The notes under the pieces: model-generated
Told to the model about the DNA's origin: nothing
Databases searched by the model: none
What the model saw: only the letters and a program-made list of their open reading frames with translations
In this document: piece after piece, positions 1,491 through 56,448 of the stretch
Layout of the letters: each line of letters begins with the position of its first letter
How positions within the stretch are numbered: the first letter of the stretch is position 1
NCBI GenBank assembly: GCA_017473225.1
Contig: JAFUMG010000004.1
Location: forward strand, 1 to 63,564
DNA from: Oscillospiraceae bacterium
GTDB lineage: Bacteria > Bacillota > Clostridia > Oscillospirales > Oscillospiraceae
Reading direction: 5' to 3'
Length of the DNA stretch: 63,564 nt
Translations under genes and position numbers: made by a program

Positions 1491-1717
1491 AAATTGTAGT
1501 TTACCGCACTGGCGCGGGAGCGCCTAACTTGCCTCTCCCTTTGGGAGAGGTGCCCCGAAGGGGCGGAGAGGGCCCTCTCATCTCCGCGCTAAGAGCCGCC
1601 CTTCGGGCGGTTGCGCTCCGAAACGCGCCTGTGGGCGCAGAGTCACGCCTTCAGCGTGCCAGCTCTCCCAGAGGGAGAGCCAAGTGGGTGTGTGAACAGT
1701 ACGATAAACTACAATTT
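1491..1717. repeat. Inverted-end intergenic element, copy 1 (interior type A)
   Basis: The element is bounded by AAATTGTAGTTTA (1491-1503) and its exact reverse complement (1705-1717). The interior is palindromic, with CTCTCCCTTTGGGAGAG and GCCCCGAAGGGGC hairpins. Interior type A is shared with the copies at 30443 and 56283. It lies between convergent spmB and the exonuclease gene and has no credible coding sequence. Confidence 0.85.
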
Positions 1718-1734
1718 AGGTATCATATGGGCGC

Positions 1735-1764
1735 AAAAAAGACGCACTGCTTTCGCGGTGCGTC
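1735..1764 (-). terminator. Intrinsic terminator of the exonuclease gene
   Basis: A GACGCAC/GTGCGTC stem (1741-1764) is followed on the minus strand by a run of six T (1740-1735). It lies directly after the TAA at 1771-1773. Confidence 0.8.
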
Positions 1765-1770
1765 CTTTTC

Positions 1771-2757
1771 TTACTCTTTCACATTTTCCACCGCGGCTTT
1801 GCGGCGGCGGCGACGGCGGGTGGTGCGCTGATCCTCGGGATCAGCCTTCTCCGCCCGGCGGGCGTAGGCCTCCGCCGCTTCGGAGGTGGCCTCGTAGGTC
1901 AGCCGGCTCACCCGGATCAGACCGTTCTGCTGCTCGCTGAGCCGCACCCGGATCAGGAATTTACCGTGCTCCGGGCAGGTGGCCATATCCATATAGCGGT
2001 GCCCCGGCTGGGCAAACCAGCGGGAACCCAGCATTCTCGCCTCGCAGACAGGGCAGCGGTTCTCCTCGCCGGACATGGCGCTGAGGGCCTCCCGCTTGTC
2101 GGCGAAGTCATAGTACACCTGCCGGCAGATGCAGCCCGGCAGCTCCGCGCCGTGGAAGCCATTTTCGTGGCTCTTCAGGGCCTGGTCATATTCCGCGGCG
2201 CCCCGCTTCAGATCCAGCTTCGCGCAGATCAGCGCCGTATGATAGGCGTCGCCCAGCGCGTCATGGGCAGGCCGGGTGGCCTCGATCTCAAACATCTCCA
2301 TAGCGGTCTTCAGGGCCTTCTGGGCCGTGGAGCCGTCGGTCTGGGCGTTGAAGATCATCTGGGCGTTATACCATTTCTCGGTCCAGCCGGTCTCCAGGCC
2401 GAAGAGCTGGAGATTTTCCCGGAGGATACCGATGTCGTCAAAGCCCCAGGTCAGGAAGACGATATCCTCGCCGCACCAGGCCCGGAACTGCTCCATGGCG
2501 CTGGGGAAGGGCACGCCCTCCTCCTTCAGCCGGGCCTCCTTGATGCCCGTCAGCTTGCTGACCCGGCGGTTCAGGTGCCGGTAGTACTTGGGCTTGACCA
2601 TAATCTGGAACTCGTCGGCCACCTGCTGGTCCTCGGTGACCCGCACCGCGCCGATCTGAATGATCTCGCCGCGGATCTGGACCGGCAGCACCTTCTTGGA
2701 AGAAGGGGATCCGGGCCAGGGCTGGTTCCATTCCATATCCAAAACAATATAATTCAT
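1771..2757 (-). CDS. DEDDh-type 3'-5' exonuclease with C-terminal cysteine region
   Basis: 328 residues. The N-terminal half is an RNase T/DnaQ-like exonuclease: D7 and E9 in VLDMEWN, D107 in WGFDDIG, and H165/D170 in HDALGD form the DEDDh metal-binding set, so the active site looks complete. This pattern matches the KapD/ERI-1 group acting on RNA or DNA 3' ends. The second half has paired cysteines (GCIC, CPVC, CPEHG) that could bind zinc, and a very basic tail with RRRRRR near the end. It is a single-gene unit with its own terminator. The substrate is unknown. Confidence 0.8.
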   Translation of the reverse strand: MNYIVLDMEWNQPWPGSPSSKKVLPVQIRGEIIQIGAVRVTEDQQVADEFQIMVKPKYYRHLNRRVSKLTGIKEARLKEEGVPFPSAMEQFRAWCGEDIVFLTWGFDDIGILRENLQLFGLETGWTEKWYNAQMIFNAQTDGSTAQKALKTAMEMFEIEATRPAHDALGDAYHTALICAKLDLKRGAAEYDQALKSHENGFHGAELPGCICRQVYYDFADKREALSAMSGEENRCPVCEARMLGSRWFAQPGHRYMDMATCPEHGKFLIRVRLSEQQNGLIRVSRLTYEATSEAAEAYARRAEKADPEDQRTTRRRRRRKAAVENVKE

Positions 2758-2884
2758 GTTCGCAACCTCTGTTACATAATCCTACATGATATCATAGCAT
2801 ACCGATCCGCCATCTGTAAACAGAAAGTTGCAAATCTTCCGGATTTTTTGTGCTCCGTTTTGAAATGTAATGTCTACCCATGCA

Positions 2885-2907
2885 GGGGAGGAGCAATGCT
2901 CCTCCCC
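2885..2907. terminator. GC-rich hairpin after the glycosyltransferase-rubrerythrin gene
   Basis: GGGGAGGAGC (2885-2894) and GCTCCTCCCC (2898-2907) form a perfect 10-bp stem just beyond the stop at 2919. The T run is missing, so this is either a weak terminator or an mRNA end stabiliser. Confidence 0.45.
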
Positions 2908-2918
2908 CCGCACAGGCG

Positions 2919-4712
2919 TTATTTCCTGCTCATCATTTTCTTCTGATCCAGGGCGCCCTCCTGCCAGCCTGGGCCCTTGCCGCAGACCGGACAGCTTTCC
3001 GCCGCCTGGGCAGAGGAATAGGTATAGCCGCAGTTCAGGCACTTCCAGGTGATAGGCTCGTCCTTCCGGGTCAGGGTATCCCCCGCCAGCTGGTCCGCCA
3101 GGGACAGGAAGGTATTGTGATGAACGCCCTCGATGGTGGCGATCCGCATCCACAGCCGGGCGGCTTCATCGAAGCCCTCCCGCCGTGCCATTTCCGCGAA
3201 GCCCGGATAGGCGCCGGTGTGCTCCTCCAGCTCGCCGTCAGCGGCGAAGACCAGGTTTTCCCGGGTATTTCCCAGCCGGAAGGGATATCCGGCATTCAGC
3301 TCGATATTGTCCGCGGTGCCGCCCAGCTTCTGGAGCCGTTCCAGGAATTCCTCGGCGTGGACCGCTTCGTTGGCGGCCGTTTCCTCGAAGATCCGCGCTA
3401 CCCATTCCAGCCCCTCCTTCCGGGCCTGGTCCGCGTAGACGGTATACCGGGTCCGGGCCTGGGCTTCTCCCGCGAAGGACCGGGCCAGATTGAGCCTTGT
3501 CTGAGAATTGATAAAATCCATATTGCATCCTCCCTCTTCCTGAGGATGCCCGGTTTCCCAGAGCTGTATGCGCTTCTTGGCTTCCGCCTTGAGGGCGCTG
3601 TAGCGGAACGCGGCCCGCATGACAAAGTGCGCGATATTCTCCGCGCTGTTTTCGCCGAAGCTTTCTGTCAGCCGCGCTTCCATATCGGCCCGCGCTTCGG
3701 CGTTCTCCGCCAGGTACACAGCCTGGGCCACCACCTCATCCGGGTCCTTGCTGCCCAGGGCGAAGCCCATCTGGAGAAAGCGGTCAAAATTCTTCGCTTC
3801 GCAGCCACCGACGGCGTTGATGAACACCATGGGCAGATGCTTGTTGGCCGCTTCCGTGGAGCTGAGTCCGCCAGGCTTGGTGACGATCAGATCCGCAGCG
3901 TCCATATATGCCGGAATATCCGGCGTAAAGCCCAGGACCCGCAGCCGCGGGTCCCGTAGCTCGGACATGTCTTCATACAGCTTTTCATTTTTGCCGCAGA
4001 CCGCGACCACCATGGCGTCCTCCGGCAGACGCGCTGCCAGTCCCTCAGCGATCTGACGGATGGGTCCGCAGCCCATGCTGCCGCACATCAGAAGGATCAC
4101 CGTCCCCGTCCCGTTCAGGTCCAGAGCCTGTCTGGTCTCCGCCCGGTCACCCCGGCGGTAGAATTCCTGCCGCACCGGGATGCCGGCGGCGATCAGCTTC
4201 TCTCTGAGGATGCCCATCTGGCAGAATTCATCCTTCAGCTCCTCCGCCGGGATGAAGTAGCCGTCCAGCTCGCTCTGCTCCAGCAGGGGCGGCGCGGAAT
4301 AATCCGTGCCCACGAAGAAGCAGGGCTCCCGCACGCCCCATTTCCGCCGCAGCTCCGTCATCATCAGGGCGGAGAACACATGGACGCAGATGATGGCGTC
4401 ATAATTGCCGTCCACCACGATCTCCCACAGCTTCCTGGCGCCCAGGGCCAGCAGTTCAAACAGCGGCGTGGATTCATCCGGATCTCCCGCGTTCCGCTCG
4501 ATGGCCCGGTAGCCCACATCCGAAAGTCTGGGGGCGTATTTATAAAGGCGTGTATGCCAATTACAGATAAATTTGGAAAATCTCGGAGACAGACAGGCCA
4601 GCACGTCCTCCATGACGCACTCCACGCCCCGCTCCTCCAGAACGTCCATCAGGGCCCTGGCCGTGGAATTATGTCCCTCGCCGGTATTGCAGGAAAGCAT
4701 CAATACCCGCAT
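2919..4712 (-). CDS. Processive-type diacylglycerol glycosyltransferase fused in frame to rubrerythrin
   Basis: One uninterrupted frame of 597 residues. Residues 1-397 resemble MGDG-synthase/UgtP-like GT28 enzymes: an N-terminal SCNTGEGHNS motif, and TKPGGLSSTEA in the C-terminal UDP-sugar site. Such enzymes add hexoses to membrane diacylglycerol. From residue 398 the sequence is a complete rubrerythrin: a four-helix di-iron domain (EAQARTRY, EETAANEAVHAEEF, ELEEHTGAY, IEGVHHNTF) and a rubredoxin domain with CLNCGY and CPVCGK, which reduces hydrogen peroxide in anaerobes. No stop separates them, yet an excellent GGGAGGA site (3528-3534) lies 7 nt before the rubrerythrin ATG (3521), so rubrerythrin is probably also made alone. 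Start ATG 4712 is preferred over GTG 4721 for spacing from AAGGAA. Confidence 0.85.
   Translation of the reverse strand: MRVLMLSCNTGEGHNSTARALMDVLEERGVECVMEDVLACLSPRFSKFICNWHTRLYKYAPRLSDVGYRAIERNAGDPDESTPLFELLALGARKLWEIVVDGNYDAIICVHVFSALMMTELRRKWGVREPCFFVGTDYSAPPLLEQSELDGYFIPAEELKDEFCQMGILREKLIAAGIPVRQEFYRRGDRAETRQALDLNGTGTVILLMCGSMGCGPIRQIAEGLAARLPEDAMVVAVCGKNEKLYEDMSELRDPRLRVLGFTPDIPAYMDAADLIVTKPGGLSSTEAANKHLPMVFINAVGGCEAKNFDRFLQMGFALGSKDPDEVVAQAVYLAENAEARADMEARLTESFGENSAENIAHFVMRAAFRYSALKAEAKKRIQLWETGHPQEEGGCNMDFINSQTRLNLARSFAGEAQARTRYTVYADQARKEGLEWVARIFEETAANEAVHAEEFLERLQKLGGTADNIELNAGYPFRLGNTRENLVFAADGELEEHTGAYPGFAEMARREGFDEAARLWMRIATIEGVHHNTFLSLADQLAGDTLTRKDEPITWKCLNCGYTYSSAQAAESCPVCGKGPGWQEGALDQKKMMSRK
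3521..3534 (-). promoter_or_regulatory. Internal ribosome binding site before the rubrerythrin domain
   Basis: On the minus strand GGGAGGA lies 7 nt before ATG 3521, the natural first codon of rubrerythrin (MDFINSQTRL). It is inside the longer open frame and supports separate synthesis of about 200-residue rubrerythrin. Confidence 0.7.
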
Positions 4713-4875
4713 CCGAAACACTTCCTTTCAATCAGAATATGGGAAGCAGATCGCAGAATACAGCGCCCTACGATGACATACTTGATCGCAGCGCTATACC
4801 GCGAGCTTCCATTGACATTCAGTTTATTATATTGTCCCCCATTCTTAAGAAAGTTACGAAAAAATGTCCAAAGTG

Positions 4876-4909
4876 TAAAAAATCCCCGAAGTGCCAAGGC
4901 ACTTCGGGG
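4876..4909 (-). terminator. Intrinsic terminator of nagB
   Basis: CCCCGAAGTGCC (4884-4895) pairs perfectly with GGCACTTCGGGG (4898-4909), followed on the minus strand by ATTTTTTA. The rest of 4713-4930 holds the upstream region of the glycosyltransferase gene, with a TATAAT-like box near 4830 but no clear -35. Confidence 0.88.
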
Positions 4910-4930
4910 ACGGATATCCAATTACAGGGA

Positions 4931-5659
4931 TTACTCCTCCAGCAGGGACAGGGCTTCCTCGTCGGCAACGATGGTGCAGTCGGGATGCAGCTGCAGGATG
5001 GATGCGGGGACCTTGGGATCGATGGGGCCGGTGAACATGGCCTTGACAGCCTGGGCCTTGTTCTTGCCGTTGACAACCATCAGGACCTTCTTGGCCTGCA
5101 TGATGCCCCAGATGCCCATGGTGTAGGCCTGGCGGGGAACATCGTCACGGCTGGCGAAGAAACGCTGGTTGGCATCGATGGTGGACTCTGCCAGCTTGAC
5201 GCAGTGGGTACCGGGGATGAAGACCTCGTCGGGCTCGTTGAAGCCGATGTGGCCGTTGGGGCCCATGCCCAGCAGCTGCAGGTCGGTGTGAAGCTCGCCG
5301 ATCAGCTTATCATAGTTGCCGCACTCTGCCTCGGGATCCTCGGTCAGGCCACTGGGGATATTGCAGTTAGCCTGGTCGATGTTCACATGGTCGAACAGGT
5401 TGTTGCGCATGAAGTAGGCGTAGCTCTGGTCATGGTCCTTGCTCAGGCCCACATATTCGTCCAGATTGACGGTCTTGACCTGGGAGAAGTCCAGCTCGCC
5501 GGCTTCGTACTTCTTGATCAGCTCCTTATAGGTGCCCACGGGGCTGCTGCCGGTGGCCAGGCCCAGAACACAGTCGGGCTTCAGGGTCACGACGGAAGCG
5601 ATGATGCCCGCAGCCTTGACGCTGACGTCAGCGTAGTCTTTCGCACGGATGAGTTTCAT
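4931..5659 (-). CDS. nagB: Glucosamine-6-phosphate deaminase
   Basis: 242 residues, normal length for NagB. It converts glucosamine-6-phosphate to fructose-6-phosphate and ammonia in the cytoplasm, linking amino-sugar use and wall recycling to glycolysis. Family motifs are clear: LATGSSPVGTYKEL (phosphate binding), VNLDEYVGL with the catalytic aspartate, and LGMGPNGHIGFNEP with the catalytic histidine. ATG 5659 is preceded by AAAGGGG. A TATACT box near 5720 on the minus strand suggests its own promoter. It is monocistronic, with no nagA or transporter beside it. Confidence 0.95.
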   Translation of the reverse strand: MKLIRAKDYADVSVKAAGIIASVVTLKPDCVLGLATGSSPVGTYKELIKKYEAGELDFSQVKTVNLDEYVGLSKDHDQSYAYFMRNNLFDHVNIDQANCNIPSGLTEDPEAECGNYDKLIGELHTDLQLLGMGPNGHIGFNEPDEVFIPGTHCVKLAESTIDANQRFFASRDDVPRQAYTMGIWGIMQAKKVLMVVNGKNKAQAVKAMFTGPIDPKVPASILQLHPDCTIVADEEALSLLEE

Positions 5660-5899
5660 AATGAGGAGTCCCCTTTCGTGTAATTGAGATAAAATTCCGG
5701 TTGTTCCGTTGGTCTTAGTATAGCATCTTTCCCAATCCATGTACAGTCCCAAAATAAAAAAACAATCGATTTTTGCAAACACACAATTTCATTCGGCAAG
5801 TCCATTGCCGTCTGGCCTTATTTTTAATTCTGTTTTTGGCACTGTATTTATTGCCAGACCATTGTATAATACCACCATAAAGAAAAGGAGGTCATCCCT

Positions 5900-6466: not shown

Positions 6467-6499
6467 TGCCGCGCCTGTTGAAGGATCGCTGATAATCGA

Positions 6500-6532
6500 A
6501 ACGCTCCGTCCATTATGGGACGGAGCGTTTTT
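6500..6532. terminator. Terminator between the ECF S gene and the MATE gene
   Basis: ACGCTCCGTCC and GGGACGGAGCGT form an 11-bp stem with a small loop, followed by TTTTTC on the plus strand. It serves the S-component gene and may also act for the convergent MATE gene. Confidence 0.85.
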
Positions 6533-6533
6533 C

Positions 6534-7928: not shown

Positions 7929-7943
7929 TTCCTTTGCTAAAAA

Positions 7944-7957
7944 GTTGCACCCGCAAC
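7944..7957 (-). promoter_or_regulatory. Possible operator of the MATE gene
   Basis: GTTGC-ACCC-GCAAC is a perfect 5-bp inverted repeat placed between a TATAAC box (7969-7964, minus strand) and the ribosome site, where a repressor would overlap the transcription start. No regulator gene is adjacent. Confidence 0.4.
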
Positions 7958-8466: not shown

Positions 8467-8468
8467 GG

Positions 8469-9964: not shown

Positions 9965-10223
9965 TGTGGTTATCGGCTTTCATAAGCATAACAGTTAAAA
10001 TAATGGTGTCATCCTGAGCGAGCGAAGCGAGTCGAAGGCTAGCGTCCGCAGGCGCTGTGCAAGCGAGCAACCGGGCGCAGCCCGGCTCTTAGCGAGTCGT
10101 AATCTTGGCACGAATTTAACTGCAAATCAAAACAAAGTGCGTAGATCCCTCGACTTCGCTCGGGATGACATACTTGTTTCATTGTGCGTTTTTAGTACTT
10201 GTTTACGAAAACCGATAACCACA
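9965..10223. repeat. Second-family inverted-end element (copy 1, interior type C)
   Basis: Bounded by TGTGGTTATCGGCTTT (9965-9980) and AAAACCGATAACCACA (10208-10223), imperfect inverted repeats. The interior carries a GTCATCCTGAGCGAGCGAAG motif paired with a CTTCGCTCGGGATGAC motif. The same interior sits in the element at 41198 with different ends, and in a second copy of this family at 27295. The 383-bp gap between the membrane-protein gene and barstar holds only this element and a terminator. Confidence 0.75.
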
Positions 10224-15678: not shown

Positions 15679-15939
15679 AAATTGTAGTTTAGCGTGCAGT
15701 TAAAAAGAAGCACGTCATTGCGAGCCAGTGCTCACACTGGCGTGGCAATCCCCACGTTTTTCCGTGAACTTACGGAGAAGAAAATGGTAGACTATGCCTG
15801 GAAACACCCAGGTTTTCGATGTCCGACCGCATTGCGCCGCCGTAGGGGATTGCCACACCAGTCCGCGGACTGGTTCGCAATGACAGCGTATTTTTTAGAC
15901 GCCGCAACCACTATTCAACGGAACGATAAACTACAATTT
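15679..15939. repeat. Inverted-end intergenic element, copy 2 (interior type B)
   Basis: AAATTGTAGTTTA (15679-15691) and its exact reverse complement (15927-15939) bracket an interior containing GTCATTGCGAGCCAGTG near the left and GGTTCGCAATGACAGCG near the right, an interior not shared with the other copies. It lies between two convergent genes and their terminators. Confidence 0.85.
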
Positions 15940-22668: not shown

Positions 22669-22711
22669 GGTATGATGAATTGTATTATATTGCTCAGTTC
22701 GACAGTGCTTT

Positions 22712-22821
22712 GTAGGGACCGGCCTCCTGGACGGTCCGCAACGTACAGACTGCGAATTCGCCAAAACAAATGCAAAAACGTGGCACATTGCTGCAGGACC
22801 GTCGAGGACGCCGGTCCCTAC
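22712..22821. repeat. Intergenic inverted repeat (GTAGGGACCGG type)
   Basis: Two 26-bp arms beginning GTAGGGACCGG at 22712 and ending CCGGTCCCTAC at 22821 are inverse complements with two mismatches. They bracket an uncoding 58-bp centre. This interior type is not shared with the other elements in the window. Confidence 0.7.
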
Positions 22822-22868
22822 GATGACGCATACTATCAGAATTACAAGCAACATTTTCAAAAAAAGAC

Positions 22869-22897
22869 TTGACAAGTTAGCGTTAGCTAACTATAAT
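22869..22897 (+). promoter_or_regulatory. Consensus promoter of the 47-residue membrane protein
   Basis: TTGACA (22869-22874) and TATAAT (22892-22897) are exactly 17 bp apart, a perfect SigA promoter. The 17-bp spacer is almost completely filled by the first operator. Confidence 0.88.
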
Positions 22898-27285: not shown

Positions 27286-27294
27286 CTGTTGGAG

Positions 27295-27500
27295 TTATCG
27301 GCTTTAATCAGCAGATACAACACAACGACCACAAACGCAGCTGTCATCCTGAGCGAGCGAAGCGAGTCGAAGGATCTTGGCACCTATTTTACTGCAAACG
27401 CTGTCATAATGCGTAGATTCCTCGACTCCGTTTCACTCCGCTCGGAATGACATATCGTTACGTTATCTGTTATAACACCCTCGCCGTCTCAAACCGATAA
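27295..27500. repeat. Second-family inverted-end element (copy 2, interior type C)
   Basis: TTATCGGCTTT (27295-27305) and AAACCGATAA (27491-27500) form the inverted ends. The interior carries GTCATCCTGAGCGAGCGAAG and the inverse CGCTCGGAATGAC, as in the copy at 9965. Confidence 0.75.
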
Positions 27501-27514
27501 TCACATCTTTTTGC

Positions 27515-30442: not shown

Positions 30443-30669
30443 AAATTGTAGTTTATCGTACTGTTCACAAACCCACTTGGCTCTCCCTATGGGAGAGCTG
30501 GCACGCCGAAGGCGTGACTCTGCACCCGCAGGCGCGTTTTGGAGCGCAACCGCCCGAAGGGCGGCTCTTAGCGCGGAGATGAGAGGGCCCTCTCCGCCCC
30601 TTCGGGGCACCTCTCCCAAAGGGAGAGGCAAGTTAGGCGCTCCCTCGCCAGTGCGCTAAACTACAATTT
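30443..30669. repeat. Inverted-end intergenic element, copy 3 (interior type A, inverted)
   Basis: AAATTGTAGTTTA (30443-30455) and its reverse complement (30657-30669) bracket the same interior as the copy at 1491, in the opposite orientation. It lies between the divergent uvrA and pth promoters. Confidence 0.85.
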
Positions 30670-30760: not shown

Positions 30761-31339
30761 ATGAACGAAACATGGCTGATCGTCGGCCTGGGAAATCCCG
30801 GCCGTGAATATGAGAAAACCCGCCACAATACCGGCTTCCGGGCCATCGATCTGCTGGCCGATTCCCTGGGCTGCAAAATCGACAAGATGAAATTCCAGGG
30901 CCTTTACTGCCAGGTGAATTACAAGGGCAAAAAGCTGATGCTGCTCAAGCCCCAGACCTTTATGAACCTGTCGGGCCGCAGCGTTTTGCAGCTGTCCGCT
31001 TACTTCAACATCCCCCCTGCCCGGATCATCGTCATGTTCGACGACATCTCCCTGGCGCCCGGGCGGCTCCGGGTCCGGGCCGACGGCTCCGCCGGCGGGC
31101 ATAACGGCATTAAGTCCATCATCCAGGAGGTGGGCTCCCAGGATTTCCCCCGGGTGAAGATCGGCGTCGGCGCCAAGCCCAATCCCGAGTACGACCTGGC
31201 TGCCTGGGTGCTGAGCACCTTCTCCGCCCAGGAGGAAAAGGCGCTGCAAAATTCCCTGGTCTGGGCCGGCGAGGCCGCCCTGGCCATCATCGACCATGGC
31301 GTTCCCGAAGCGGCCAACCGCTACAACGGCAAGCAGTAA
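30761..31339 (+). CDS. pth: Peptidyl-tRNA hydrolase
   Basis: 192 residues, normal length. It frees tRNA from peptidyl-tRNA dropped by ribosomes. The start LIVGLGNPGREYEKTRHNTGF holds the catalytic histidine and asparagine; LLKPQTFMNLSG and FDDISLAPGRLRVRADGSAGGHNG are conserved active-site segments. The ribosome site is weak. Pth next to mfd is a common arrangement in Firmicutes; here a repeat element separates them. Confidence 0.96.
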   Translation: MNETWLIVGLGNPGREYEKTRHNTGFRAIDLLADSLGCKIDKMKFQGLYCQVNYKGKKLMLLKPQTFMNLSGRSVLQLSAYFNIPPARIIVMFDDISLAPGRLRVRADGSAGGHNGIKSIIQEVGSQDFPRVKIGVGAKPNPEYDLAAWVLSTFSAQEEKALQNSLVWAGEAALAIIDHGVPEAANRYNGKQ

Positions 31340-31399: not shown

Positions 31400-31642
31400 A
31401 AATTGTAGTTTATCCGTCAGTTGTCTGCCGCACCCAAAGGCCCCCTTGTGTAAAGGGGGCTGGCTCGGCGATAGCCGAGACTGGGGGATTGTGCAGCAGA
31501 AGTCTGGAGTAACCACCAACATTTCGGCGAATTCATACTGCAGTGCAACAATCCCTCAGTCAAAAATCGGAAATTTTTGACAGCTCCCTTTACACAAGGG
31601 AGCCTTGGTCCGCTCCCGCGCCAGTGCACAAAACTACAATTT
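31400..31642. repeat. Inverted-end intergenic element, copy 4 (interior type D)
   Basis: AAATTGTAGTTTA (31400-31412) and AAAACTACAATTT (31630-31642, one mismatch) bracket an interior with CCCCCTTGTGTAAAGGGGGC on the left and CCCTTTACACAAGGG on the right, a type not shared with the other copies. It separates pth from mfd by about 330 bp. Confidence 0.82.
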
Positions 31643-37139: not shown

Positions 37140-37345
37140 CGGCAAATCTGCCTTGCTTCCCTCTTTGAGGGCGTGTCGGAGGGAGTACCGTTTGTACGAA
37201 GGGACACTCCCCCAGTCACGGCTGACGCCGTGCCAGCCCCCTCATGGAGGGGGCCAAGGCCTCTATCTGTTTTAACTACTGATTTGCGTCCAGGTGGAAG
37301 GCATGGCGGCTGCGCCGCCAAACGAAACGCGAAACTACGTTCAAA
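37140..37345. repeat. Decayed inverted-end element
   Basis: This stretch carries CCCCCTCATGGAGGGGG-like hairpin sequence and ends GGAAGGCATGGCGGCTGCGC, then a GAAACTACG version of the family end. The right part matches the copy at 47241. The left end could not be recognised. It fills the 319-bp gap between convergent genes. Confidence 0.5.
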
Positions 37346-41197: not shown

Positions 41198-41386
41198 AAA
41201 TTGTAGTTTATCGTTCCGTTACGCACCGCAGCTGTCATCCCGAGCGGAATGAAATGGAGTCGAGGGATCTACGCATTTCGTTAAGATTTGCAGTAAAATC
41301 GGTGCCAAGATCCCTCGACTCGCTGACGCTCGCTCGGGATGACAACGTTGTTGGTAATTTGCAGACTTTACGATAAACTCCAATTT
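41198..41386. repeat. Inverted-end intergenic element, copy 5 (interior type C)
   Basis: AAATTGTAGTTTA (41198-41210) and TAAACTCCAATTT (41374-41386, one mismatch) bracket the GTCATCCCGAGCGG / CGCTCGGGATGAC interior that the second repeat family also carries at 9965 and 27295. Confidence 0.83.
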
Positions 41387-41450: not shown

Positions 41451-43166
41451 TTACGCTTTTTTCTTCCGAACCGTCCGGATGACCAGCAGGACCACGAACA
41501 GCGCTACCAGACAGACCGGCAGTACGATCAGGGCGCTCTGGACATATCCGGCCAGCACATAGCCAAAGAAGGATACCGCCGCCGCTGTCAGGGAATAGGG
41601 CAGCTGGGTACTGACATGGCTGATATGCTCGCACTGGGCGCCGGTGGACGCCATGATGGTGGTATCGGAAATGGGAGAGCAGTGGTCGCCGCAGACCGCG
41701 CCGGCCAGGCAGGCGGAGACCGCGATCACCATCAGCTCGCCGCTGGGGAACACGGAGCAGACGATGGGCAGCAGCACACCGAAGGTGCCCCAGGAGGTGC
41801 CGGTGGCGAAGGCCAGGAACACCGCGATGACAAACACGATGGCGGGCAGCAGATTGGCCATGCCGGCGGCGCTGATCCGAACGAATTCCGCCACAAAGAC
41901 CTTGGCGCCCAGATTATTGGTGACGCCGGAGAGGGTCCAGGCGAAGGTCAGGATCAGAATGGCGGAGGCCATCAGCTTGAAGCCGTCAGCGACGGAATTG
42001 GTGAATTCCTTCAGGGTGACGATCTTCCGGGGCACATACAGGATGGCGGTGAACACCAGCGCCAAGGCGGAGCCCAGCACCAGACCCACGGAGGCGTCGG
42101 AATTGCCGAAGGCGTCGATGAAGTTCATATAAGAGCCGGAGGAAGCGTCAAAGAAGCCGCCGGTATAGACCATCGTCAGCACGCAGGAGACGATCAGCAC
42201 CACGATGGGCAGGATCAGGTCAATGACCTTGCCGTTGGGATTGCCGGCTTCATGCTCCGCGTCGGCATAGGGCCGGGCCTCGGTGGTGTACAGGTCGCCA
42301 TTCTTGGCGTTCTCCTCATGGATACGCATCTTGCCATAGTCAAAGCCCATAAAGGCCAGCATCAGCATCATGGCGATGGTCAGCAGGGCGTAGAAATTAT
42401 AAGGGATGGAGCTGATAAAGAGCTTCAGGCCCTGTCCCTCGGGGGCAACGCTGGAAACGGCGGCAGCCCAGGAGGAAATGGGGGCGATGATGCAGACGGG
42501 CGCGGCGGTGGCGTCGATGATATAGGCCAGCTTGGCCCGGGAGATGCCGTGCTTATCGGTGACTGGCCGCATGACGGAGCCGACGGTCAGGCAGTTGAAG
42601 TAGTCGTCAATGAAGATCAGACAGCCCAGCACCACGGTGGACAGCAGGGCGCCGGCCCGGGACTTGATGTGCACGGAAGCCCAGCGGCCATAGGCGGCGC
42701 TGCCGCCGGCCTTGTTGATCAGGCTGACCATCATGCCCAGGCACACCAGGAACACCAGAATGCCCACATTCCAGGAATCGCTGAGCTTGCTGATCATCAC
42801 GTCAAAGGTATTCGTCACCATGCCCCATACATTAAAATTGGAATACAGCAGCGCGCCGGACAGGATACCGATAAACAGGGAGGAATAGACCTCCTTGGTG
42901 ATCAGCGCCAGACCGATGGCGATGATGGGGGGAAGCAGCGACCAGAAGGTGGCATAAGTGCCGATGGACTCCCGGATCGTGTCGATGGCGGTGTTGATGT
43001 TCTCCTCGAAATTCTCGTCGGAACCCACATAGTCGGAATAGCCGTCCAGGTATTCCAGTGCCTGGTCGGGGTCGGTATAGTCCGCCGCGGTGGCTGTCAT
43101 GGCAAAGCAGCCGATCAGAGCCGCGACCATCAGCACCAGCAGGAGACGTCTTGTGATGTTTCTCAT
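41451..43166 (-). CDS. NhaC-family transporter, probably lysine transport
   Basis: 571 residues from ATG 43166. It has an N-terminal signal-like segment (RRLLLVLMVAALIGCFAMTATAADY), an acidic extracellular extension to about residue 60, then some ten to twelve membrane segments of the NhaC (Na+/H+ antiporter) family, including IFIDDYFNCLTVGSVMRP, AAPVCIIAPISSWAA and CGDHCSPISDTTIMAS. A lysine riboswitch lies in its leader. NhaC-type genes behind L-boxes have been proposed as lysine transporters, so lysine rather than sodium is the likely substrate. It is transcribed alone. Confidence 0.85.
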   Translation of the reverse strand: MRNITRRLLLVLMVAALIGCFAMTATAADYTDPDQALEYLDGYSDYVGSDENFEENINTAIDTIRESIGTYATFWSLLPPIIAIGLALITKEVYSSLFIGILSGALLYSNFNVWGMVTNTFDVMISKLSDSWNVGILVFLVCLGMMVSLINKAGGSAAYGRWASVHIKSRAGALLSTVVLGCLIFIDDYFNCLTVGSVMRPVTDKHGISRAKLAYIIDATAAPVCIIAPISSWAAAVSSVAPEGQGLKLFISSIPYNFYALLTIAMMLMLAFMGFDYGKMRIHEENAKNGDLYTTEARPYADAEHEAGNPNGKVIDLILPIVVLIVSCVLTMVYTGGFFDASSGSYMNFIDAFGNSDASVGLVLGSALALVFTAILYVPRKIVTLKEFTNSVADGFKLMASAILILTFAWTLSGVTNNLGAKVFVAEFVRISAAGMANLLPAIVFVIAVFLAFATGTSWGTFGVLLPIVCSVFPSGELMVIAVSACLAGAVCGDHCSPISDTTIMASTGAQCEHISHVSTQLPYSLTAAAVSFFGYVLAGYVQSALIVLPVCLVALFVVLLVIRTVRKKKA

Positions 43167-43191
43167 ATTTCTCGTCCTTTCTGTTAAAAAC

Positions 43192-43229
43192 AAAAAACCG
43201 CGAACCTTGGAACAATCCAACATTCACGG
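43192..43229 (-). terminator. Riboswitch-controlled terminator
   Basis: On the minus strand CCGTGAATG...TTCGCGG (43228-43199) forms an imperfect stem with an inner TTGGA/TCCAA stem, followed by TTTTTTG (43198-43192). It lies between the aptamer and the start codon at 43166. Confidence 0.75.
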
Positions 43230-43257
43230 CAAAAGGCAGCTGAGCCCTAAAGACGAC

Positions 43258-43420
43258 GAATGATAGCGCTCCACTTTCGTGACAGTCCGGCGGATATTCT
43301 CCGACGGCCCAGCGTCTCCGCCCGGGAAGCGGAAGACACTTCGGCGGTTTGCCCCTTCCCGAAGGCCGGAATCCCGTTCCGTGCAGCCCCCGGTACTCAT
43401 GCGCACCGCGCCTCTATCGA
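43258..43420 (-). promoter_or_regulatory. Lysine riboswitch (L-box)
   Basis: Read on the minus strand, the leader has the conserved L-box core in order: AGAGGCGCG, ATGAGTA, GGGAAGGGG, CCGCCGAAG, GCTGGG, GGACTGTCAC and GTGGAGCGCTATC. These are the invariant junction segments of the five-helix lysine aptamer. A terminator follows, so excess lysine should stop transcription of the NhaC-family gene. Confidence 0.9.
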
Positions 43421-43507
43421 TTCACAGTTTTTAATTGGTACAGCGAGTATAACACCGGAATCCTGCCTTGTCAACAGAGAATCCGTGCTTTTTCAACTTT
43501 CTTCCCC

Positions 43508-47240: not shown

Positions 47241-47485
47241 AAATTGTAGTTTGGTAAACTGGCGCGGGAGCGCCCATGGCTTCCCCCGGGAGGAAGCTGT
47301 CACCGCCTCAAGGCGGTGACTGATGAGGAATGCGGGCGGAAAACTTAGGTCTTCGCATTTGTATCAGGCTTTTTCCAGACTTCGGTGCACGCCATTCCTC
47401 ATCCGACCTCGCTTCGCTCGGCCACCTTCCCCCCGGGGGAAGGCATGGCGGCTACGCCACCGAACGGAGCGACAAACTACAATTC
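47241..47485. repeat. Inverted-end intergenic element, copy 6 (interior type E)
   Basis: AAATTGTAGTTTG (47241-47253) and CAAACTACAATTC (47473-47485) are the ends, each with one change from the family consensus. The interior has GTCACCGCCTCAAGGCGGTGAC and TTCCCCCGGGAGGAAG hairpins. Confidence 0.82.
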
Positions 47486-51153: not shown

Positions 51154-51252
51154 GGGAAGCGCTCCCTTTTTGTGATAATAGTTTATTATACCACTGAAAT
51201 ACCCAGGGCGCAACGGTATTCCGGCTTTTTTGCGGCAGAGATACGTTTTTCC

Positions 51253-51281
51253 TTGCCATGTCACTTGCGGCTTGTTATAAT
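51253..51281 (+). promoter_or_regulatory. Promoter of the second SLH gene
   Basis: TTGCCA (51253-51258) and TATAAT (51276-51281) are 17 bp apart; the start codon is at 51316. Confidence 0.75.
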
Positions 51282-51315
51282 ACTCCTGACAGATTCTTGA
51301 AATGGAGGATTCCAT

Positions 51316-54129
51316 ATGACAACACGTCTGATTCGAATATTCCTGTGTCTGTGCCTGCTGCTGAGCCTGCCCGTCTCCACGGTGCTGGCGGCAGAAGCTG
51401 ACGCGAACACCCCCGCCACAACCGACGCGATCGACGAGATCATCGCCGCTTCCCCGGTGCTGACCACCAACATGGGCGCTCACGATTACATCAATTCAGA
51501 GCGCTGGACGGACCCTTCCCGCTCCGCGCTGATGTACGACGAAGCTTCCCAGACCTACACCCGCGTGGAGTACACCGGAAGCTATGTGGCCGTGGAGACC
51601 TATGACGCCAGCTTCCAGTACGTCAGCCGGCTGACCATCGCCATGGAGCTTCCCATTTACGGCGGCTTCCACGAGGGCGAAAGCTACAATTTCCTGATCT
51701 TCGGCCAGGAGAATCCCGAGGAGGATGACTCCGTGGAGGTCATCCGGGTGGTCAAATATGACAAGAGCTGGAACCGTCTGGGCCAGGCCAGTCTCTGCGG
51801 CGCCAATACCACCATCCCCTTTGACGCCGGCGGCATGAGCACCGCGGAATACAACGGCTACCTCTACATCCGCACCAGCCATGAGATGTACGCCGACGAA
51901 AACGGCACCAACCACCAGGCCAATCTGACCATGAACGTCCGCATCTCCGACATGGTGGTAACGGATTCCTACTACGATGCCATGAACCGCAACTATGGCT
52001 ATGTCAGCCATTCCTTCAACCAGTACATCCGGGTGGATGAAAGCACCGGCGAGTTGGTAGCCGTGGACCACGGTGACGCCTCCCCCCGCTCCATCGTGCT
52101 GACCCGGTACTACGCCCCCGCCGGCCAGGATTCCTTCATGACCGCGAAAAAGGTCCCCCTGGAAAGCGGCGCCTATACCTACGCGTATGCCGACAGCGTG
52201 GATGTGCTGTCGATCCTGGGCGAGTCCGGCGATAACGATACCGGCGTATCCCTGGGCGGCTTTGAGATCTCCGATACCGCCTATCTGACGGTGGGTACCA
52301 CCGTATCGCAGTATGCCACCAGCTATGACCCCTCCATCCAGCGTTCCGTTTTCCTGGCAGTCACCGATAAGGAGACCCTCACTACCGAGGTAACCTATGT
52401 GACAGGCTACGGCAACGCTCTATACCCCACTAATCCCCAGCTGGTAAAAATCAGTGACAACAAATTCATGCTCCAATGGTCTTACTCTTCCCACAATAGC
52501 AACAAATATGATTGTGTCTTTATTGATGGCAATGGCCAGTATTTGGCAGAGTGGAACTCCATCTCGTCTGCCAACTGCGAGACCCTCCTCTCCGACTGCC
52601 AGCCCATCGTCGCCGACGGCAAGGTGGTCTGGTATATGACCGCCAGCTCCAAGCCAGTATTCTGTACCGTCGATGTTGAGGATCCCTATACCTTCTCTGA
52701 GACCCATCTGTTTGATTACGGTGTCGGCGTCTATCCCACCGAATCCAGGGAAGGCACCCTGTATGCGGAATGCTACATCTGTGAGGGCGTCTGGACATCC
52801 ACCATGCCCGTCCTGGGCTCTGACGCGTATACCCTCTTCTCCTCCACTGCGCCAACCTGCGAATCCGACGGCGTCGATGCCTACCTGTGGACGACCCCCC
52901 ATGGCGATCTGGTCACCTTCTACATCAAAACGGACGCCTATGGCCACGATTACAGCGACTGGACCCTGCCGGAGGATGCTGCCTGCGGCGACTATGTGGA
53001 TTACTACCGTACCTGCAGCCGCTGCAACAATGTAGAAACCAATAGAGCGTTTCGTAACCACAATCTGGAACTGGTCATTATTGAGCCCACCTGCACAGAA
53101 CGGGGTTACACCAATCAGGTCTGCAGCCGATGCGGCTACACACGGATGCTGGAAAGCTCCTACGCCAGTCCCACCGGACATGATTGGACCAACTGGACCC
53201 AGCTGGAGGCCCCCTCCTGCATCGACAAGGGCCTGATGGGCCGCAGCTGCACAGTCTGCGGTATCAGTGAGACCTCCGAGATTGGTTATAACGATCATGA
53301 CTACGTGGTGACGGAATCCGTGGACGTCGGCTGCACCCACGACGGCTATGAGATCTATACCTGCACCGTCTGCGGTGATTCCCACAAGACCACCACTCTG
53401 ACCGCCATGGGCCACTGGTGGGATACGGAGCGTTTCGAGGATGGCATTCTCTGGACCTGCACCGGCTGCGGCTACAGCGAAATGAAGTATTTCAACGGCG
53501 ACACTGTGGTCATTGACCCTGGTGACGAGGCAGTCCCCTCGGAGCCCGACGAACCCGATGTACCCGATGAGCCTGACGGAATTTCCTTCACCGATGTGGC
53601 AGAGGGCGCCTACTACTATGACGCCGTTCTGTGGGCTGTGGAGGAAGGCATCACCGAGGGCTACGGCAGTGCCACCACCTTCTGCCCCGACCTTCCCTGC
53701 ACCCGGGCCCAGGTGGTCACCTTCCTGTGGCGGGCCGCGGGCAAGCCTGCCCCGGAATCCAGCGTAAATCCCTTCACCGACGTGCCCGGCGGCAGCTGGT
53801 ATACCGAAGCCGTCCTCTGGGCCGTGGAGGAGGACATCACCAAGGGCTACGGCAGCGAGACCACCTTCTGCCCCGACCGGGAATGCACCCGGGCGGAGAT
53901 CGTCACCTTCCTGCACCGCTACGCGAACACCCCTGCACCCAGCTCCGGCGATAATCCCTTCGTGGACGTTTCCTCCGGCAGCTGGTACCGTGATGCCGTG
54001 CTGTGGGCCGTGGAGGCGGAGATCACCAACGGCTACGGCAGCGCCACCACCTTCTGCCCGGATGTGATCTGCTCCAGAGGACAGATCGTCACCTTCCTGT
54101 ACCGGGCCCGTGAAATGTTCGAAATCTGA
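51316..54129 (+). CDS. Secreted SLH protein with beta-propeller-like and cysteine-rich regions
   Basis: 937 residues. Signal peptide (RIFLCLCLLLSLPVSTVLAAEA), a 480-residue beta-rich region with repeated ligand-like strands (for example WNRLGQASLCGANTTIPFD and the later LVKISDNKFMLQWSYSSHN), which could be a beta propeller, then cysteine-rich repeats (PTCTERGYTNQVCSRCGYTR, APSCIDKGLMGRSCTVCGIS) and three SLH modules near the C-terminus (TDVAEGAYYYDAVLWAVEEG onward). A short stretch at 52420-52530 is visibly AT-richer than the rest of the gene, suggesting a patch of exchanged DNA. It should be bound non-covalently to the wall. Confidence 0.8.
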   Translation: MTTRLIRIFLCLCLLLSLPVSTVLAAEADANTPATTDAIDEIIAASPVLTTNMGAHDYINSERWTDPSRSALMYDEASQTYTRVEYTGSYVAVETYDASFQYVSRLTIAMELPIYGGFHEGESYNFLIFGQENPEEDDSVEVIRVVKYDKSWNRLGQASLCGANTTIPFDAGGMSTAEYNGYLYIRTSHEMYADENGTNHQANLTMNVRISDMVVTDSYYDAMNRNYGYVSHSFNQYIRVDESTGELVAVDHGDASPRSIVLTRYYAPAGQDSFMTAKKVPLESGAYTYAYADSVDVLSILGESGDNDTGVSLGGFEISDTAYLTVGTTVSQYATSYDPSIQRSVFLAVTDKETLTTEVTYVTGYGNALYPTNPQLVKISDNKFMLQWSYSSHNSNKYDCVFIDGNGQYLAEWNSISSANCETLLSDCQPIVADGKVVWYMTASSKPVFCTVDVEDPYTFSETHLFDYGVGVYPTESREGTLYAECYICEGVWTSTMPVLGSDAYTLFSSTAPTCESDGVDAYLWTTPHGDLVTFYIKTDAYGHDYSDWTLPEDAACGDYVDYYRTCSRCNNVETNRAFRNHNLELVIIEPTCTERGYTNQVCSRCGYTRMLESSYASPTGHDWTNWTQLEAPSCIDKGLMGRSCTVCGISETSEIGYNDHDYVVTESVDVGCTHDGYEIYTCTVCGDSHKTTTLTAMGHWWDTERFEDGILWTCTGCGYSEMKYFNGDTVVIDPGDEAVPSEPDEPDVPDEPDGISFTDVAEGAYYYDAVLWAVEEGITEGYGSATTFCPDLPCTRAQVVTFLWRAAGKPAPESSVNPFTDVPGGSWYTEAVLWAVEEDITKGYGSETTFCPDRECTRAEIVTFLHRYANTPAPSSGDNPFVDVSSGSWYRDAVLWAVEAEITNGYGSATTFCPDVICSRGQIVTFLYRAREMFEI

Positions 54130-54135
54130 CAGAAT

Positions 54136-54156
54136 AGCCGGGGAAACCCGGCTTTT
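54136..54156 (+). terminator. Terminator of the second SLH gene
   Basis: AGCCGGG-GAAA-CCCGGCT followed by TTT. Confidence 0.85.
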
Positions 54157-54160
54157 CGTC

Positions 54161-54189
54161 TTGACGGCGGCAGAATACCGCCCTATAAT
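54161..54189 (+). promoter_or_regulatory. Promoter of the third SLH gene
   Basis: TTGACG (54161-54166) and TATAAT (54184-54189) are exactly 17 bp apart, starting a few bases after the previous terminator. Confidence 0.8.
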
Positions 54190-54226
54190 GAAAGCATGAG
54201 CCAAATAGACACAAGGAGGAAATCCC

Positions 54227-56209
54227 ATGAACAAGAAACTGATCCGGGCACTGTGCCTGATCCTCTGCGCCGTGATGGTCCTGGGCCTGCTGCCCGCCAT
54301 CGCCTTCGCCGCGGAAGCCGAAAGCACCGTCACCGTCGTCACCCAGGCCGAAGACGGCACCTATTACCGCAGGGAAACCACTTCCCAGTCCGCCGCGGGC
54401 TCCCTGCCCCGCACCGCCAGCGAGCTGATCCCCCTGGGCACCCCCACAGATCCCCAGTGGGGCATCTACAATTCCGATGAAATGCCCGGCGCCATCAGCT
54501 GGGCCACCGCGGAGCCTGACCAGGGCAATGCCTGGATCCAGGTCTACCGGGAGGGCGATACGGACCCCTACGCCAGCTATGGCTGGTCTTTCGGTTCCAC
54601 CTATCTCCCCGAGCGCCGCTATATTGACAGCTTCTGCCTGCAAAATCCCGAAAGCGGCACCTATTATTTCACTGTCCAGTCCGAAGGTGACAACACTGCC
54701 TACTGCGACAGCGAAATCCTGACCTCCGGCACCTGGACCTATACCAAGCCCAGCGCCCGGCTGGACACCTGCTCCGGCCTGACCTGGAACTGGCCCCAGT
54801 GCAGCTGGACCGCAGTTACCGGCGACCACGTGGACGGCTACGAGGTGGAATGGTATTTTGTCGCCACCGCCGATGATGAACCCCGCAGCTGCGGCGGCAG
54901 TTGGTCCCGGGGCGGCGCCGACCGCACCACCAATTCTCCCTGGGATGAGCTGATCCAGGAAAATGGCATCGGCTACTACTATTTCCGGGTCCGTGCCCTC
55001 TCCGATGACATCACCGCCGCCTGCAACGGCGAATGGTCCGAGCTCAGCGAGCCCTTCAACCTGACCGAGCTTTCCCTGAGCGTGGAAGAGCAGCTGGAAG
55101 AGATCACCACCGGTGATCCCGACGAGATCCGTTCCGCTGTCCAGGCCATGGACACCCAGGAACTGAAGTCCGCCATGCTGGCCGACCAGGATAACACCGG
55201 CGCCACCGCTCAGATTGCCGCATTGGAAGAGACCGCCGGCGGCTCCGCCGCCATCGAGGTCGCGGACAACGCCAGCGCCTTTGACGCCTCCCAGGTCTCC
55301 ATCGTCGGCGCCAACCTGAATACCCCCACCTCTGACGCGAACCCCATCACCTTGGTCATCGACAAGCCCGAGAAGACTGACGTGATCCCCGCCGCTTACG
55401 ACAACGCCGTGGCCGTCCGCTTCTCCATGACCCTGGACAATGTAGCGGACCCCGAAAATCTGGAGGTCCCCGTCAAGATCACCCTGCCCGTTCCCGCGTC
55501 CATCAATCCCAGCTTCCTGGTGATCCTGCACTACCACGCCGCCACCGGCGAAGTGGAGGAGATCCGGCCCTGGGTCTATCAGGAGAACGGCCAGTATTAC
55601 GCCGCCTTCGTGCTGACCAGCTTCAGCGATTTTGTCATGACCCAGCTGGCAGAGACCTCCGGCAATCCCTTCGTAGACGTTCCCCAGGACAGCTATTACT
55701 ATGACGCCGCCCTGTGGGCCGCTGACCTGGGCATCACCGCCGGCTACGGCAGCGCCGAAACCTTCTGCCCCGATCTGGCCTGCACCCGTGCCCAGGTAGT
55801 CACCTTCCTGTGGCGTGCCGCCGGCGAGCCCGTGCCCCGGTCCAGCGCCAATCCCTTTGTGGATGTTGTGAATTCCCAGAACACCAGCTGGTACTATACC
55901 GCCGTGCTGTGGGCCGCGGAGGAAGGCATCACCGCGGGCTATGGCAGCGATACCACCTTCTGCCCCGATCAGGAGTGCAGCCGTGCCGAGATCGTGACCT
56001 TCCTGCACCGCTACGCGGGTACCCCCGCTCCCGCATCCATCAACGATCCCTTCGTGGATGTTCCCGCGGGTGAATGGTATACCAATGCCGTCCTGTGGGC
56101 CGTGGAAGAGGGCATCACCAACGGCCTTGGCTCCACTACCACCTTCTGCCCCAACAGCGTCTGCAACCGCGCCCAGATCGTCACTTTCCTCTACCGCGCG
56201 GAGCAGTAA
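54227..56209 (+). CDS. Secreted SLH protein with Fn3-like domains
   Basis: 660 residues. Signal peptide (KLIRALCLILCAVMVLGLLPAIAFAAEA), two Fn3-like beta domains (about residues 60-170 and 170-285, each built as PGAISWATAEPDQGNAWIQV then SGTYYFTVQS), a helical acidic linker, a ZU5-like beta region ending FSDFVMTQLA and three SLH modules. The last two SLH modules are nearly identical at the DNA level to those of the first SLH gene. AAGGAGG precedes the start. It has its own promoter and terminator. Confidence 0.82.
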   Translation: MNKKLIRALCLILCAVMVLGLLPAIAFAAEAESTVTVVTQAEDGTYYRRETTSQSAAGSLPRTASELIPLGTPTDPQWGIYNSDEMPGAISWATAEPDQGNAWIQVYREGDTDPYASYGWSFGSTYLPERRYIDSFCLQNPESGTYYFTVQSEGDNTAYCDSEILTSGTWTYTKPSARLDTCSGLTWNWPQCSWTAVTGDHVDGYEVEWYFVATADDEPRSCGGSWSRGGADRTTNSPWDELIQENGIGYYYFRVRALSDDITAACNGEWSELSEPFNLTELSLSVEEQLEEITTGDPDEIRSAVQAMDTQELKSAMLADQDNTGATAQIAALEETAGGSAAIEVADNASAFDASQVSIVGANLNTPTSDANPITLVIDKPEKTDVIPAAYDNAVAVRFSMTLDNVADPENLEVPVKITLPVPASINPSFLVILHYHAATGEVEEIRPWVYQENGQYYAAFVLTSFSDFVMTQLAETSGNPFVDVPQDSYYYDAALWAADLGITAGYGSAETFCPDLACTRAQVVTFLWRAAGEPVPRSSANPFVDVVNSQNTSWYYTAVLWAAEEGITAGYGSDTTFCPDQECSRAEIVTFLHRYAGTPAPASINDPFVDVPAGEWYTNAVLWAVEEGITNGLGSTTTFCPNSVCNRAQIVTFLYRAEQ

Positions 56210-56225
56210 TTCCAGCTTTTCCCAA

Positions 56226-56255
56226 AAACGCCTCCATCCTGCGATGGAGGCGTTT
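56226..56255 (+). terminator. Terminator of the third SLH gene
   Basis: AAACGCCTCCATC and GATGGAGGCGTTT form a perfect 13-bp stem. Confidence 0.9.
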
Positions 56256-56282
56256 CGCTGTTCCAAAGAGGTTCGTGTCTTC

Positions 56283-56448
56283 AAATTGTAGCTTATCGCA
56301 CTGGCGCGGAAGCGCCCAACTTGCCTCTCCCTTTGGGAGAGGTGCCCCGAAGGGGCGGAGAGGGCCCTCTCAGTCACGCCTTCGGCGTGCCAGCTCTCCC
56401 TGAGGGAGAGCCAAGTGGGTTTGTGAACATCGCTATAAACTACAATTC
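56283..56448. repeat. Inverted-end intergenic element, copy 7 (interior type A)
   Basis: AAATTGTAGCTTA (56283-56295) and TAAACTACAATTC (56436-56448), one mismatch each. It is a shorter version of interior type A; compared with the copy at 1491 a central block of about 60 bp is missing. The -35 of the next gene begins directly at its right end. Confidence 0.83.

What the first reader, a model, noticed from the sequence alone, without database searches (positions are those of the whole stretch)
1491..56448. One inverted-end shell carrying several unrelated interiors
Seven intergenic elements (1491, 15679, 30443, 31400, 41198, 47241, 56283) share 13-bp inverted ends, AAATTGTAGTTTA, and extended ends near TATCGT. 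Their interiors fall into at least five unrelated palindromic types (A at 1491, 30443 and 56283; B at 15679; C at 41198; D at 31400; E at 47241). An eighth, decayed copy seems to lie at 37140. Elements normally share both ends and interior, so this suggests that interiors are swapped or inserted into a mobile shell, or that the ends act as a recombination target. All copies avoid genes and several sit directly against promoters (30657, 56448) or terminators.
Basis: partly seen in the sequence, partly recalled or inferred. Interest (0 to 1): 0.75.

Follow-up and report, generated by a model that had tools for sequence, protein, structure and literature searches.

The report
Swappable cores in mobile repeat shells
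A gut bacterium and its relatives carry many copies of a tiny mobile DNA shell whose paired ends stay the same while the middle is replaced by unrelated hairpin repeats, apparently even at the same chromosomal spot in sister species.

Summary
In detail: seven inverted end-pairs lie at the stated places, against none in 50 simulated sequences. The genome holds 137 exact copies of the end. Ninety-one complete elements fall into about eleven interior groups. The ends belong to a genus-wide family, AAATTGnnnTTTRnCG, whose triplet nnn is typical of the lineage and shared by unrelated interiors. Interiors are REP-like palindrome pairs that also occur without the shell. In a sister-species pair, G005 and G032, I compared 23 sites that carry an element in G005. 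At ten, both flanks align and the shell sits at the same base (within 2 bp): seven carry a different class of core, two a different subtype, one an inverted core. One further site (L333) keeps a similar interior. In G005 shell triplet and core class are unlinked. I conclude that interiors are replaced in place inside resident shells. The enzyme is unknown: no target duplication and no gene-bearing copy was found in what I read, and RAYT genes do not track copy number. A second shell family behaves likewise. Exchange is shown in relatives, not in the window's own species.

The parts
1491..1717 (.). shell-1 element, core type A (227 bp)
   Evidence: both 13-bp ends exact; interior 0.96 identical to 30443
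15679..15939 (.). shell-1 element, core type B: inverted pair of CGTC-type REPs (GTCATTGCGAGC) (261 bp)
   Evidence: both ends exact; one of 19 members of this core group; core matches 90 of 136 genus genomes
30443..30669 (.). shell-1 element, core type A (227 bp), upstream of pth (30761-31339)
   Evidence: both ends exact; pth by Pfam and NCBIfam
31400..31642 (.). shell-1 element, core type D (243 bp), between pth and a transcription-repair coupling factor gene
   Evidence: ends with 0 and 1 mismatch; one of 9 members; TRCF domains
41198..41386 (.). shell-1 element, core type C (TGTCATCCCGAGC) (189 bp)
   Evidence: ends with 0 and 1 mismatch; one of 12 members
47241..47485 (.). shell-1 element, core type E (245 bp)
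   Evidence: ends with 1 and 2 mismatches; in a group of 14
56283..56448 (.). shell-1 element, short form of core type A (166 bp)
   Evidence: ends with 1 and 1 mismatch; 0.64 to the long A interiors
22677..22875 (.). decayed shell-1 copy with GTAG-type core (right limit approximate)
   Evidence: core match 22711-22831; decayed left end read by eye
37179..37345 (.). probable decayed copy of the D/k7 type (right limit approximate, no left end recognised)
   Evidence: core match 37179-37265; right end by eye
9968..10220 (.). shell-2 element (ends GGTTATCGGCTTT) with a C-type core
27293..27502 (.). shell-2 element with a C-type core, ends with 1 and 3 mismatches

Best explanation
The conserved part is a pair of inverted recognition ends, about 16-23 bp each, of a non-autonomous mobile element: AAATTG-nnn-TTTR-nCG, with nnn typical of the lineage. 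The interior is an exchangeable cargo, mostly an inverted pair of REP-type palindromes (GTAG-type, CGTC-type and others) that also spread on their own. A factor acting in trans on the ends (inferred, not found) amplified the element separately in several lineages and so keeps the ends uniform across unrelated cores. After insertion the site stays put but its interior is turned over: through the short ends another copy's core replaces the resident one, or the core is inverted. The likeliest enzymology is either a site-specific recombinase acting on the paired ends (cassette exchange and inversion), or breakage at the element followed by repair from another copy. Shown: unrelated cores in one shell; cores without shells; lineage-typical ends shared by unrelated cores; same-base shells with different cores in sister species. 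Inferred: mobility by a trans-acting protein, in-place replacement as the cause of the different cores, and the enzymology.
For: 137 exact ends in G000, reversed control 0; 91 elements in about 11 interior groups. Generic end in 95 of 136 genus genomes, reversed-pattern controls 0-2 per genome. Triplets: 7 of 8 TAG in the window, which was not selected for it; 16 of 16 TTG in the G421 loci; 7 of 9 CAG in the G399 loci (loci other than the window were fetched by end matches, so partly selected). Core B in 90 of 136 genomes, bare in some loci and in shells with other triplets in others. G005/G032: 10 sites with both flanks aligned and shell at the same base within 2 bp; 7 different core class, 2 different subtype, 1 inverted. 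At the five best, 150-bp flanks are 0.86-0.97, interiors 0.46-0.74, best paralogue in the own genome 0.81-1.00. Core class is independent of triplet in G005 (1396 of 2000 shuffles as linked or more) and G032 (1136 of 2000); left and right triplets are independent in G005 (1407 of 2000).
Against: No target duplication, no clean empty site, no enzyme found. The exchange is seen in G005/G032, not in G000. L333 keeps a similar interior (0.81 with flanks 0.70/0.72, shell offset about 18 bp). In G032 left and right triplets are linked (1 of 2000 shuffles), and the bases next to the triplet are linked to it (position 13: 6 of 2000 in G005, 0 in G032; position 14: 0 in G032), so the shell end moves as a block. 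Interior position 28 agrees between the two ends more than shuffled partners (z 5.0), unlike positions 1-22. All genomes are draft assemblies.
Confidence: 0.6

Rival explanations
1. The shell is a pre-existing short palindrome that serves as a landing site. REP dimers insert into its loop independently in each lineage, so different cores at one site are separate fillings of an ancestral empty shell and not replacements.
For: Coreless or nearly coreless shells exist: 35 and 49 bp in G059, 2 of 21 elements listed. Small hairpin insertions sit in loops of several cores (read). REP dimers inside palindromes are reported in two other bacteria (PMC3733652, passage).
Against: In 320 kb of G005 the shortest clean end-pair is 99 bp with a core; none is empty. 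The end triplet differs between lineages while the core stays recognisable, which a passive landing site does not explain.
Confidence: 0.2
2. Ordinary homologous recombination or gene conversion among dispersed repeats, without a dedicated enzyme.
For: Interiors resemble paralogues of the same genome. The same-class changes (B, S2, L327) share long REP arms that could recombine.
Against: At class-swap sites only about 12-18 bp per side are shared (read), which by general knowledge (recalled) is below the usual need of RecA-dependent exchange.
Confidence: 0.1
3. An ordinary MITE-like family whose members merely share ends; different cores at the same site are independent insertions into hot spots or assembly chimeras.
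For: Flanks prefer G-rich sequence and a KKY-like triplet next to the end. All genomes are drafts and many contigs break in elements.
Against: Same-base insertion at ten orthologous sites would need strong site specificity, but the flank motif is weak. Core-specific sequence begins within about 25 bp of unique flank at the class-swap sites, so chimeras there are unlikely (inference).
Confidence: 0.1

Closest known systems
REP dimers (BIME/REPIN), GTAG and CGTC superfamilies, with RAYT transposases (PMC3733652)
   Same: The interiors: inverted pairs of short palindromes with GTAG or CGTC heads, high copy, mostly downstream of genes; in G059 a Y1 gene lies between two GTAGGGCGGGGTC repeats, the repeat that also sits in shells.
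   Different: The shell is outside this family: its GTAG in G000 reads GTTG, GCAG or GGTG in relatives, its arms do not covary, and Y1 genes do not track its copy number.
REP dimers inserted in palindromes of Anabaena variabilis and Halothiobacillus neapolitanus (PMC3733652, passage)
   Same: REP dimers inside a conserved outer palindrome; for these two the paper says target palindromes without REPs were not found.
   Different: As far as the passage shows, one dimer type per palindrome; here one shell holds many unrelated cores, shells nest, and cores differ at orthologous sites.
MITEs
   Same: Short, non-coding, inverted ends, many intergenic copies.
   Different: No target duplication, no parent transposon found, no family-defining interior.
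TIR families of TIRYT elements (PMC3733652, section 16)
   Same: Dispersed terminal-repeat families unrelated to REPs.
   Different: No Y1 gene flanked by these ends was seen; 6 of the 12 genomes with at least 60 ends have no Y1 match.

Membership tests
MITE | short non-coding element with terminal inverted repeats in many copies | tested here: met
   91 pairs of 79-347 bp, no copy with a gene inside among those read
MITE | target-site duplication | tested here: not met
   best of 120 offset/length tests z 2.5 in 91 elements; best z 2.1 in the 36 with exact ends; 2.2 in 21 of G059
MITE | parent transposon with the same ends | tested here: inconclusive
   four wide end-pairs among 268 loci: three join ends of separate elements, one is a lone end beside a gene; none in 320 kb of G005; genomes only partly read
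REP (for the shell) | fixed GTAG or CGTC head and a hairpin stem | tested here: not met
   the bases vary between lineages; left/right agreement at positions 1-22 is as for shuffled partners
REP (for the shell) | associated RAYT/Y1 gene | tested here: not met
   6 of 12 genomes with at least 60 ends have no PF01797 match; no shell end in the loci of the two G059 Y1 genes
REP dimer (for GTAG cores) | GTAG head, palindrome, inverted pair, RAYT flanked by the same repeat | tested here: met
   one G059 Y1 gene lies between GTAGGGCGGGGTC repeats; the other has a GTAGGGGACGGG pair on one side only
REP dimer (for CGTC cores) | CGTC/TGTC head, inverted pair, no dedicated transposase | tested here: inconclusive
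   head and inverted pair read; absence of a transposase not tested
recombinase-exchanged cassette | fixed site with exchangeable interior | tested here: met
   10 of 10 well-aligned G005/G032 sites
recombinase-exchanged cassette | a recombinase acting on the ends | not tested
   no candidate gene; only Y1 was searched as a family

The most novel reading that the evidence does not exclude
A dispersed cassette-exchange system of the chromosome: hundreds of fixed docking shells share lineage-specific ends, in which the triplet may be the crossover or specificity region, and an unknown recombinase swaps and inverts REP-type cores between them, so that a genus keeps reshuffling its intergenic hairpins. 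More than one shell family does this, and they nest in one another.
Probability: 0.3. Interest if true: 0.85.

Novelty: new variant of a known kind. Interest (0 to 1): 0.62.

Why it matters
Small repeats are usually treated as families defined by their whole sequence. Here ends and middle evolve separately, and the middle of a resident copy seems to turn over while its place stays fixed. That would explain mosaic intergenic hairpins, give a route by which REP families spread without a transposase of their own (an open point for CGTC REPs in PMC3733652), and point to an unidentified enzyme. Each swap would also change a hairpin next to gene ends; that consequence is inferred.

Tried and rejected
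Target duplications: grid tests gave nothing. Flanks pairing as a hairpin: no individual-level complementarity. Hairpin selection on the ends: not supported at positions 1-22. RAYT/Y1 as general mobiliser of the shell: rejected. A Y1 match in G043 lies at the position orthologous to window 30.4-31.7 kb, which made me test the window ORF 30761-31339; it is peptidyl-tRNA hydrolase. L100 4820-6214 looked like a gene-bearing copy but is a lone end beside what I take, without a search, for an alanine racemase. Clean empty sites: none; intergenic DNA between G000 and relatives is too diverged, and the one G032 element with no shell in G005 leaves about 60 bp of unalignable flank. The family-wide search (1 of 300 genomes, G000 itself) used one triplet and says little about the shell outside the genus. 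In one search, 34 of 58 stretches come from one roe-deer MAG (RGIG4187), 13 from other Clostridia-like records, and 11 from unrelated groups that are probably chance (my estimate was about 7 chance hits).

Literature: six searches of the held library; the 13-mer is in no held paper. Of PMC3733652 I read the abstract and outline, passages, section 16 and part 1 of 2 of section 17. Of all other papers I saw only search listings. That I know of no report of core exchange rests on these searches.
Full report
WHAT IS THERE. The window is contig C72 of a draft genome, G000 (1.78 Mb, 97 contigs, 78.6% complete). Fifty simulated sequences of the same first-order composition gave no pair. The genome has 137 exact copies of AAATTGTAGTTTA and none of the reversed control. 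In the 403 kb fetched around copies there are 91 complete pairs closer than 600 bp; many unpaired ends lie near contig ends, as expected when a repeat breaks an assembly. The aligned ends are conserved from about -3 to +23.

INTERIORS. K-mer clustering gives eight groups at a loose threshold and eleven at a stricter one, with 19, 16, 14, 12, 11, 9, 4, 3, 1, 1 and 1 members. In the window, types A, B, C, D and E match each other at the level of shuffled sequence, except D/E at 0.62; the short A copy matches the long ones at 0.64. The interiors are mostly inverted pairs of short palindromes. B is CGTC-type (GTCATTGCGAGC); two small groups are GTAG-type. The names GTAG and CGTC follow PMC3733652. 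Secondary insertions of about 54-62 bp with a common hairpin lie in hairpin loops of three core types (read by eye).

CORES WITHOUT THE SHELL. Core B matches 90 of 136 genomes of the genus. In the loci read it is bare in some species and inside shells with other triplets in others. In G000, bare B and AATGC-type cores occur too. Two Y1 (RAYT) genes of G059 were read: one lies between two GTAGGGCGGGGTC repeats, the repeat also found inside shells of G059 and G421; the other has a GTAG pair on one side only.

A GENUS-WIDE SHELL WITH LINEAGE-TYPICAL ENDS. With the exact TAG end, 11 of 61 genomes match, three of them heavily. With AAATTGnnnTTTRnCG, 95 of 136 match; by my count 32 have at least 10 ends, against controls of 0-2. 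Triplets: 7 of 8 TAG in the window, which was not chosen by end matches; in loci that were, 114 of 122 TAG (G000), 13 of 15 TAG (G059), 16 of 16 TTG (G421), 7 of 9 CAG (G399), TTG 25 and GTG 18 of 48 (G005), GTG 20 and TTG 6 of 27 (G032). G372 and G378 are mostly CCA and G368 mostly GAA/GAG in the places that one search lists. Unrelated cores share the triplet within a species. Agreement between the two ends of an element is no higher than for shuffled partners over positions 1-22, though it is at interior position 28 (z 5.0); the ends therefore look like sequence-recognition sites and not paired stems.

IN-PLACE REPLACEMENT. G005 (395 ends) and G032 (337) are sister species. Starting from G005 elements I compared 23 sites: seven from two 20-kb regions (one further element there, L271 17833, fell outside the alignment), and 16 from flank pieces searched in G032. 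For the latter, 54 of 74 elements passed a filter, 44 were used, two pieces hit only repeats and 26 had no listed match; the tool scored 40 of 272 candidates. Ten of the 23 have both flanks aligned and the shell at the same base within 2 bp: A, B, D, S2, L327, L328, L330, L331, L335, L337. Seven carry different core classes (G005 / G032): A CGTC / GTAG, D GTAG / CGTC, L328 CGTC / GTAG, L330 GTAG / CGTC, L331 GTAG / CGTC, L335 GTAG / E-type, L337 GTAG / CGTC. Two carry different subtypes of B (B, S2) and one an inverted B core (L327). Flank identities over 150 bp for the best five are A 0.96/0.93, B 0.95/0.97, L327 0.94/0.89, L328 0.89/0.93, L330 0.86/0.92; their interiors are 0.50, 0.66, 0.74 (inverted), 0.46 and 0.49, while the best paralogue in the same genome is 0.81-1.00. 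For D, S2 and L331 the flanks are 0.72/0.81, 0.84/0.79 and 0.76/0.78; for L335 and L337 blastn gives 88.7/88.9% and 81.2/85.3%. Shared sequence at class-swap sites stops about 12-18 bp inside the element (read).

The other 13 sites: three are cut by contig ends (L305, L324, L332); two have no shell in G032 (L326, L334); S4 does not align; L336 has a shell 114 bp away; C, S3, L304, L306 and L329 have shells with different interiors but a missing flank, a composite structure or weak alignment; and L333 has a similar interior (0.81) with flanks at 0.70/0.72 and an offset of about 18 bp, which speaks against a universal turnover. One G032 element (L273 11136-11368) has no shell in G005, but its flanks do not join cleanly.

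FREE ASSORTMENT. In G005 (52 elements) the triplet is independent of the core class in the adjoining 60 bp (1396 of 2000 shuffles at least as linked) and left and right triplets are independent (1407 of 2000). In G032 (22 elements) the triplet is independent of core class (1136 of 2000), but left and right triplets are linked (1 of 2000). Position 13 is linked to the triplet in both (6 and 0 of 2000), position 14 in G032 (0 of 2000).

ASSEMBLY. All genomes are drafts. At the class-swap sites core-specific sequence begins within about 25 bp of unique flank on both sides, and contigs of G000 that start in an element mostly have the shell end about 100-230 bp from the contig start, as with long k-mers. 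I think the class swaps at A, L328 and L330 are not chimeras; this is inference, and long reads would settle it.

SECOND SHELL. Elements with GGTTATCGGCTTT ends carry C-type and D-type cores in G000. One of them lies inside a shell-1 element (C47:8342-8578), and in G005 a shell-2 pair contains a shell-1 element (L298 4082-4314). Modularity and nesting are thus not peculiar to one family.

HOW IT MOST LIKELY WORKS. A trans-acting protein recognises the ends; this is inferred from their uniformity across unrelated cores and their change between lineages. It spread the element in some lineages. At resident sites the same protein, or repair of breaks at the element, lets another copy's interior replace the old one through the short ends. 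The cores are REP-type repeats supplied by their own spread. Y1 enzymes are not the general helper: 6 of the 12 genomes with at least 60 ends (G000, G368, G411, G421, G422, G032) have no PF01797 match. No target duplication was found, unusual for a classical cut-and-paste element. Elements sit mostly downstream of genes: of 70 classified, 29 lie between convergent and 7 between divergent genes, against 47 and 39 of 203 intergenic regions in the same stretches, a distribution like that of REPs.

NOVELTY. Nested REP dimers are known (PMC3733652) and MITEs with common ends are known (general knowledge). I found no report of interior exchange at orthologous sites in six searches of an open-access library. 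I rate it a new variant of a known kind; it would be categorically new only if a dedicated exchange enzyme were shown.

Noticed in passing
window 9968-10220 and 27293-27502; G000:C47:8342-8578; G005 L298 4082-4314: A second shell family with GGTTATCGGCTTT ends carries C-type and D-type cores and nests inside or around shell 1.
   Followed up: partly
window 43256-43424, minus strand: Lysine riboswitch (RF00168, 93.6 bits), next to a Na+/H+ antiporter-family gene at 41451-43223, minus strand (PF03553).
   Followed up: no
L189 (G043:C33), L190 and L191 (G059): Small Y1 (RAYT-like) genes with GTAG-type repeats beside them in an Oscillospiraceae genus.
   Followed up: partly
G000:C20:20428, C16:1202, C61:30955 and others: Hairpin insertions of about 54-62 bp with a common TTGCCGGTGGCAA-like centre sit in hairpin loops of several unrelated cores: a third layer of nesting (read by eye).
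   Followed up: partly
L114 7478-7512 and L163 1721-1769 (G059): Shells of 35 and 49 bp with almost no core.
   Followed up: partly
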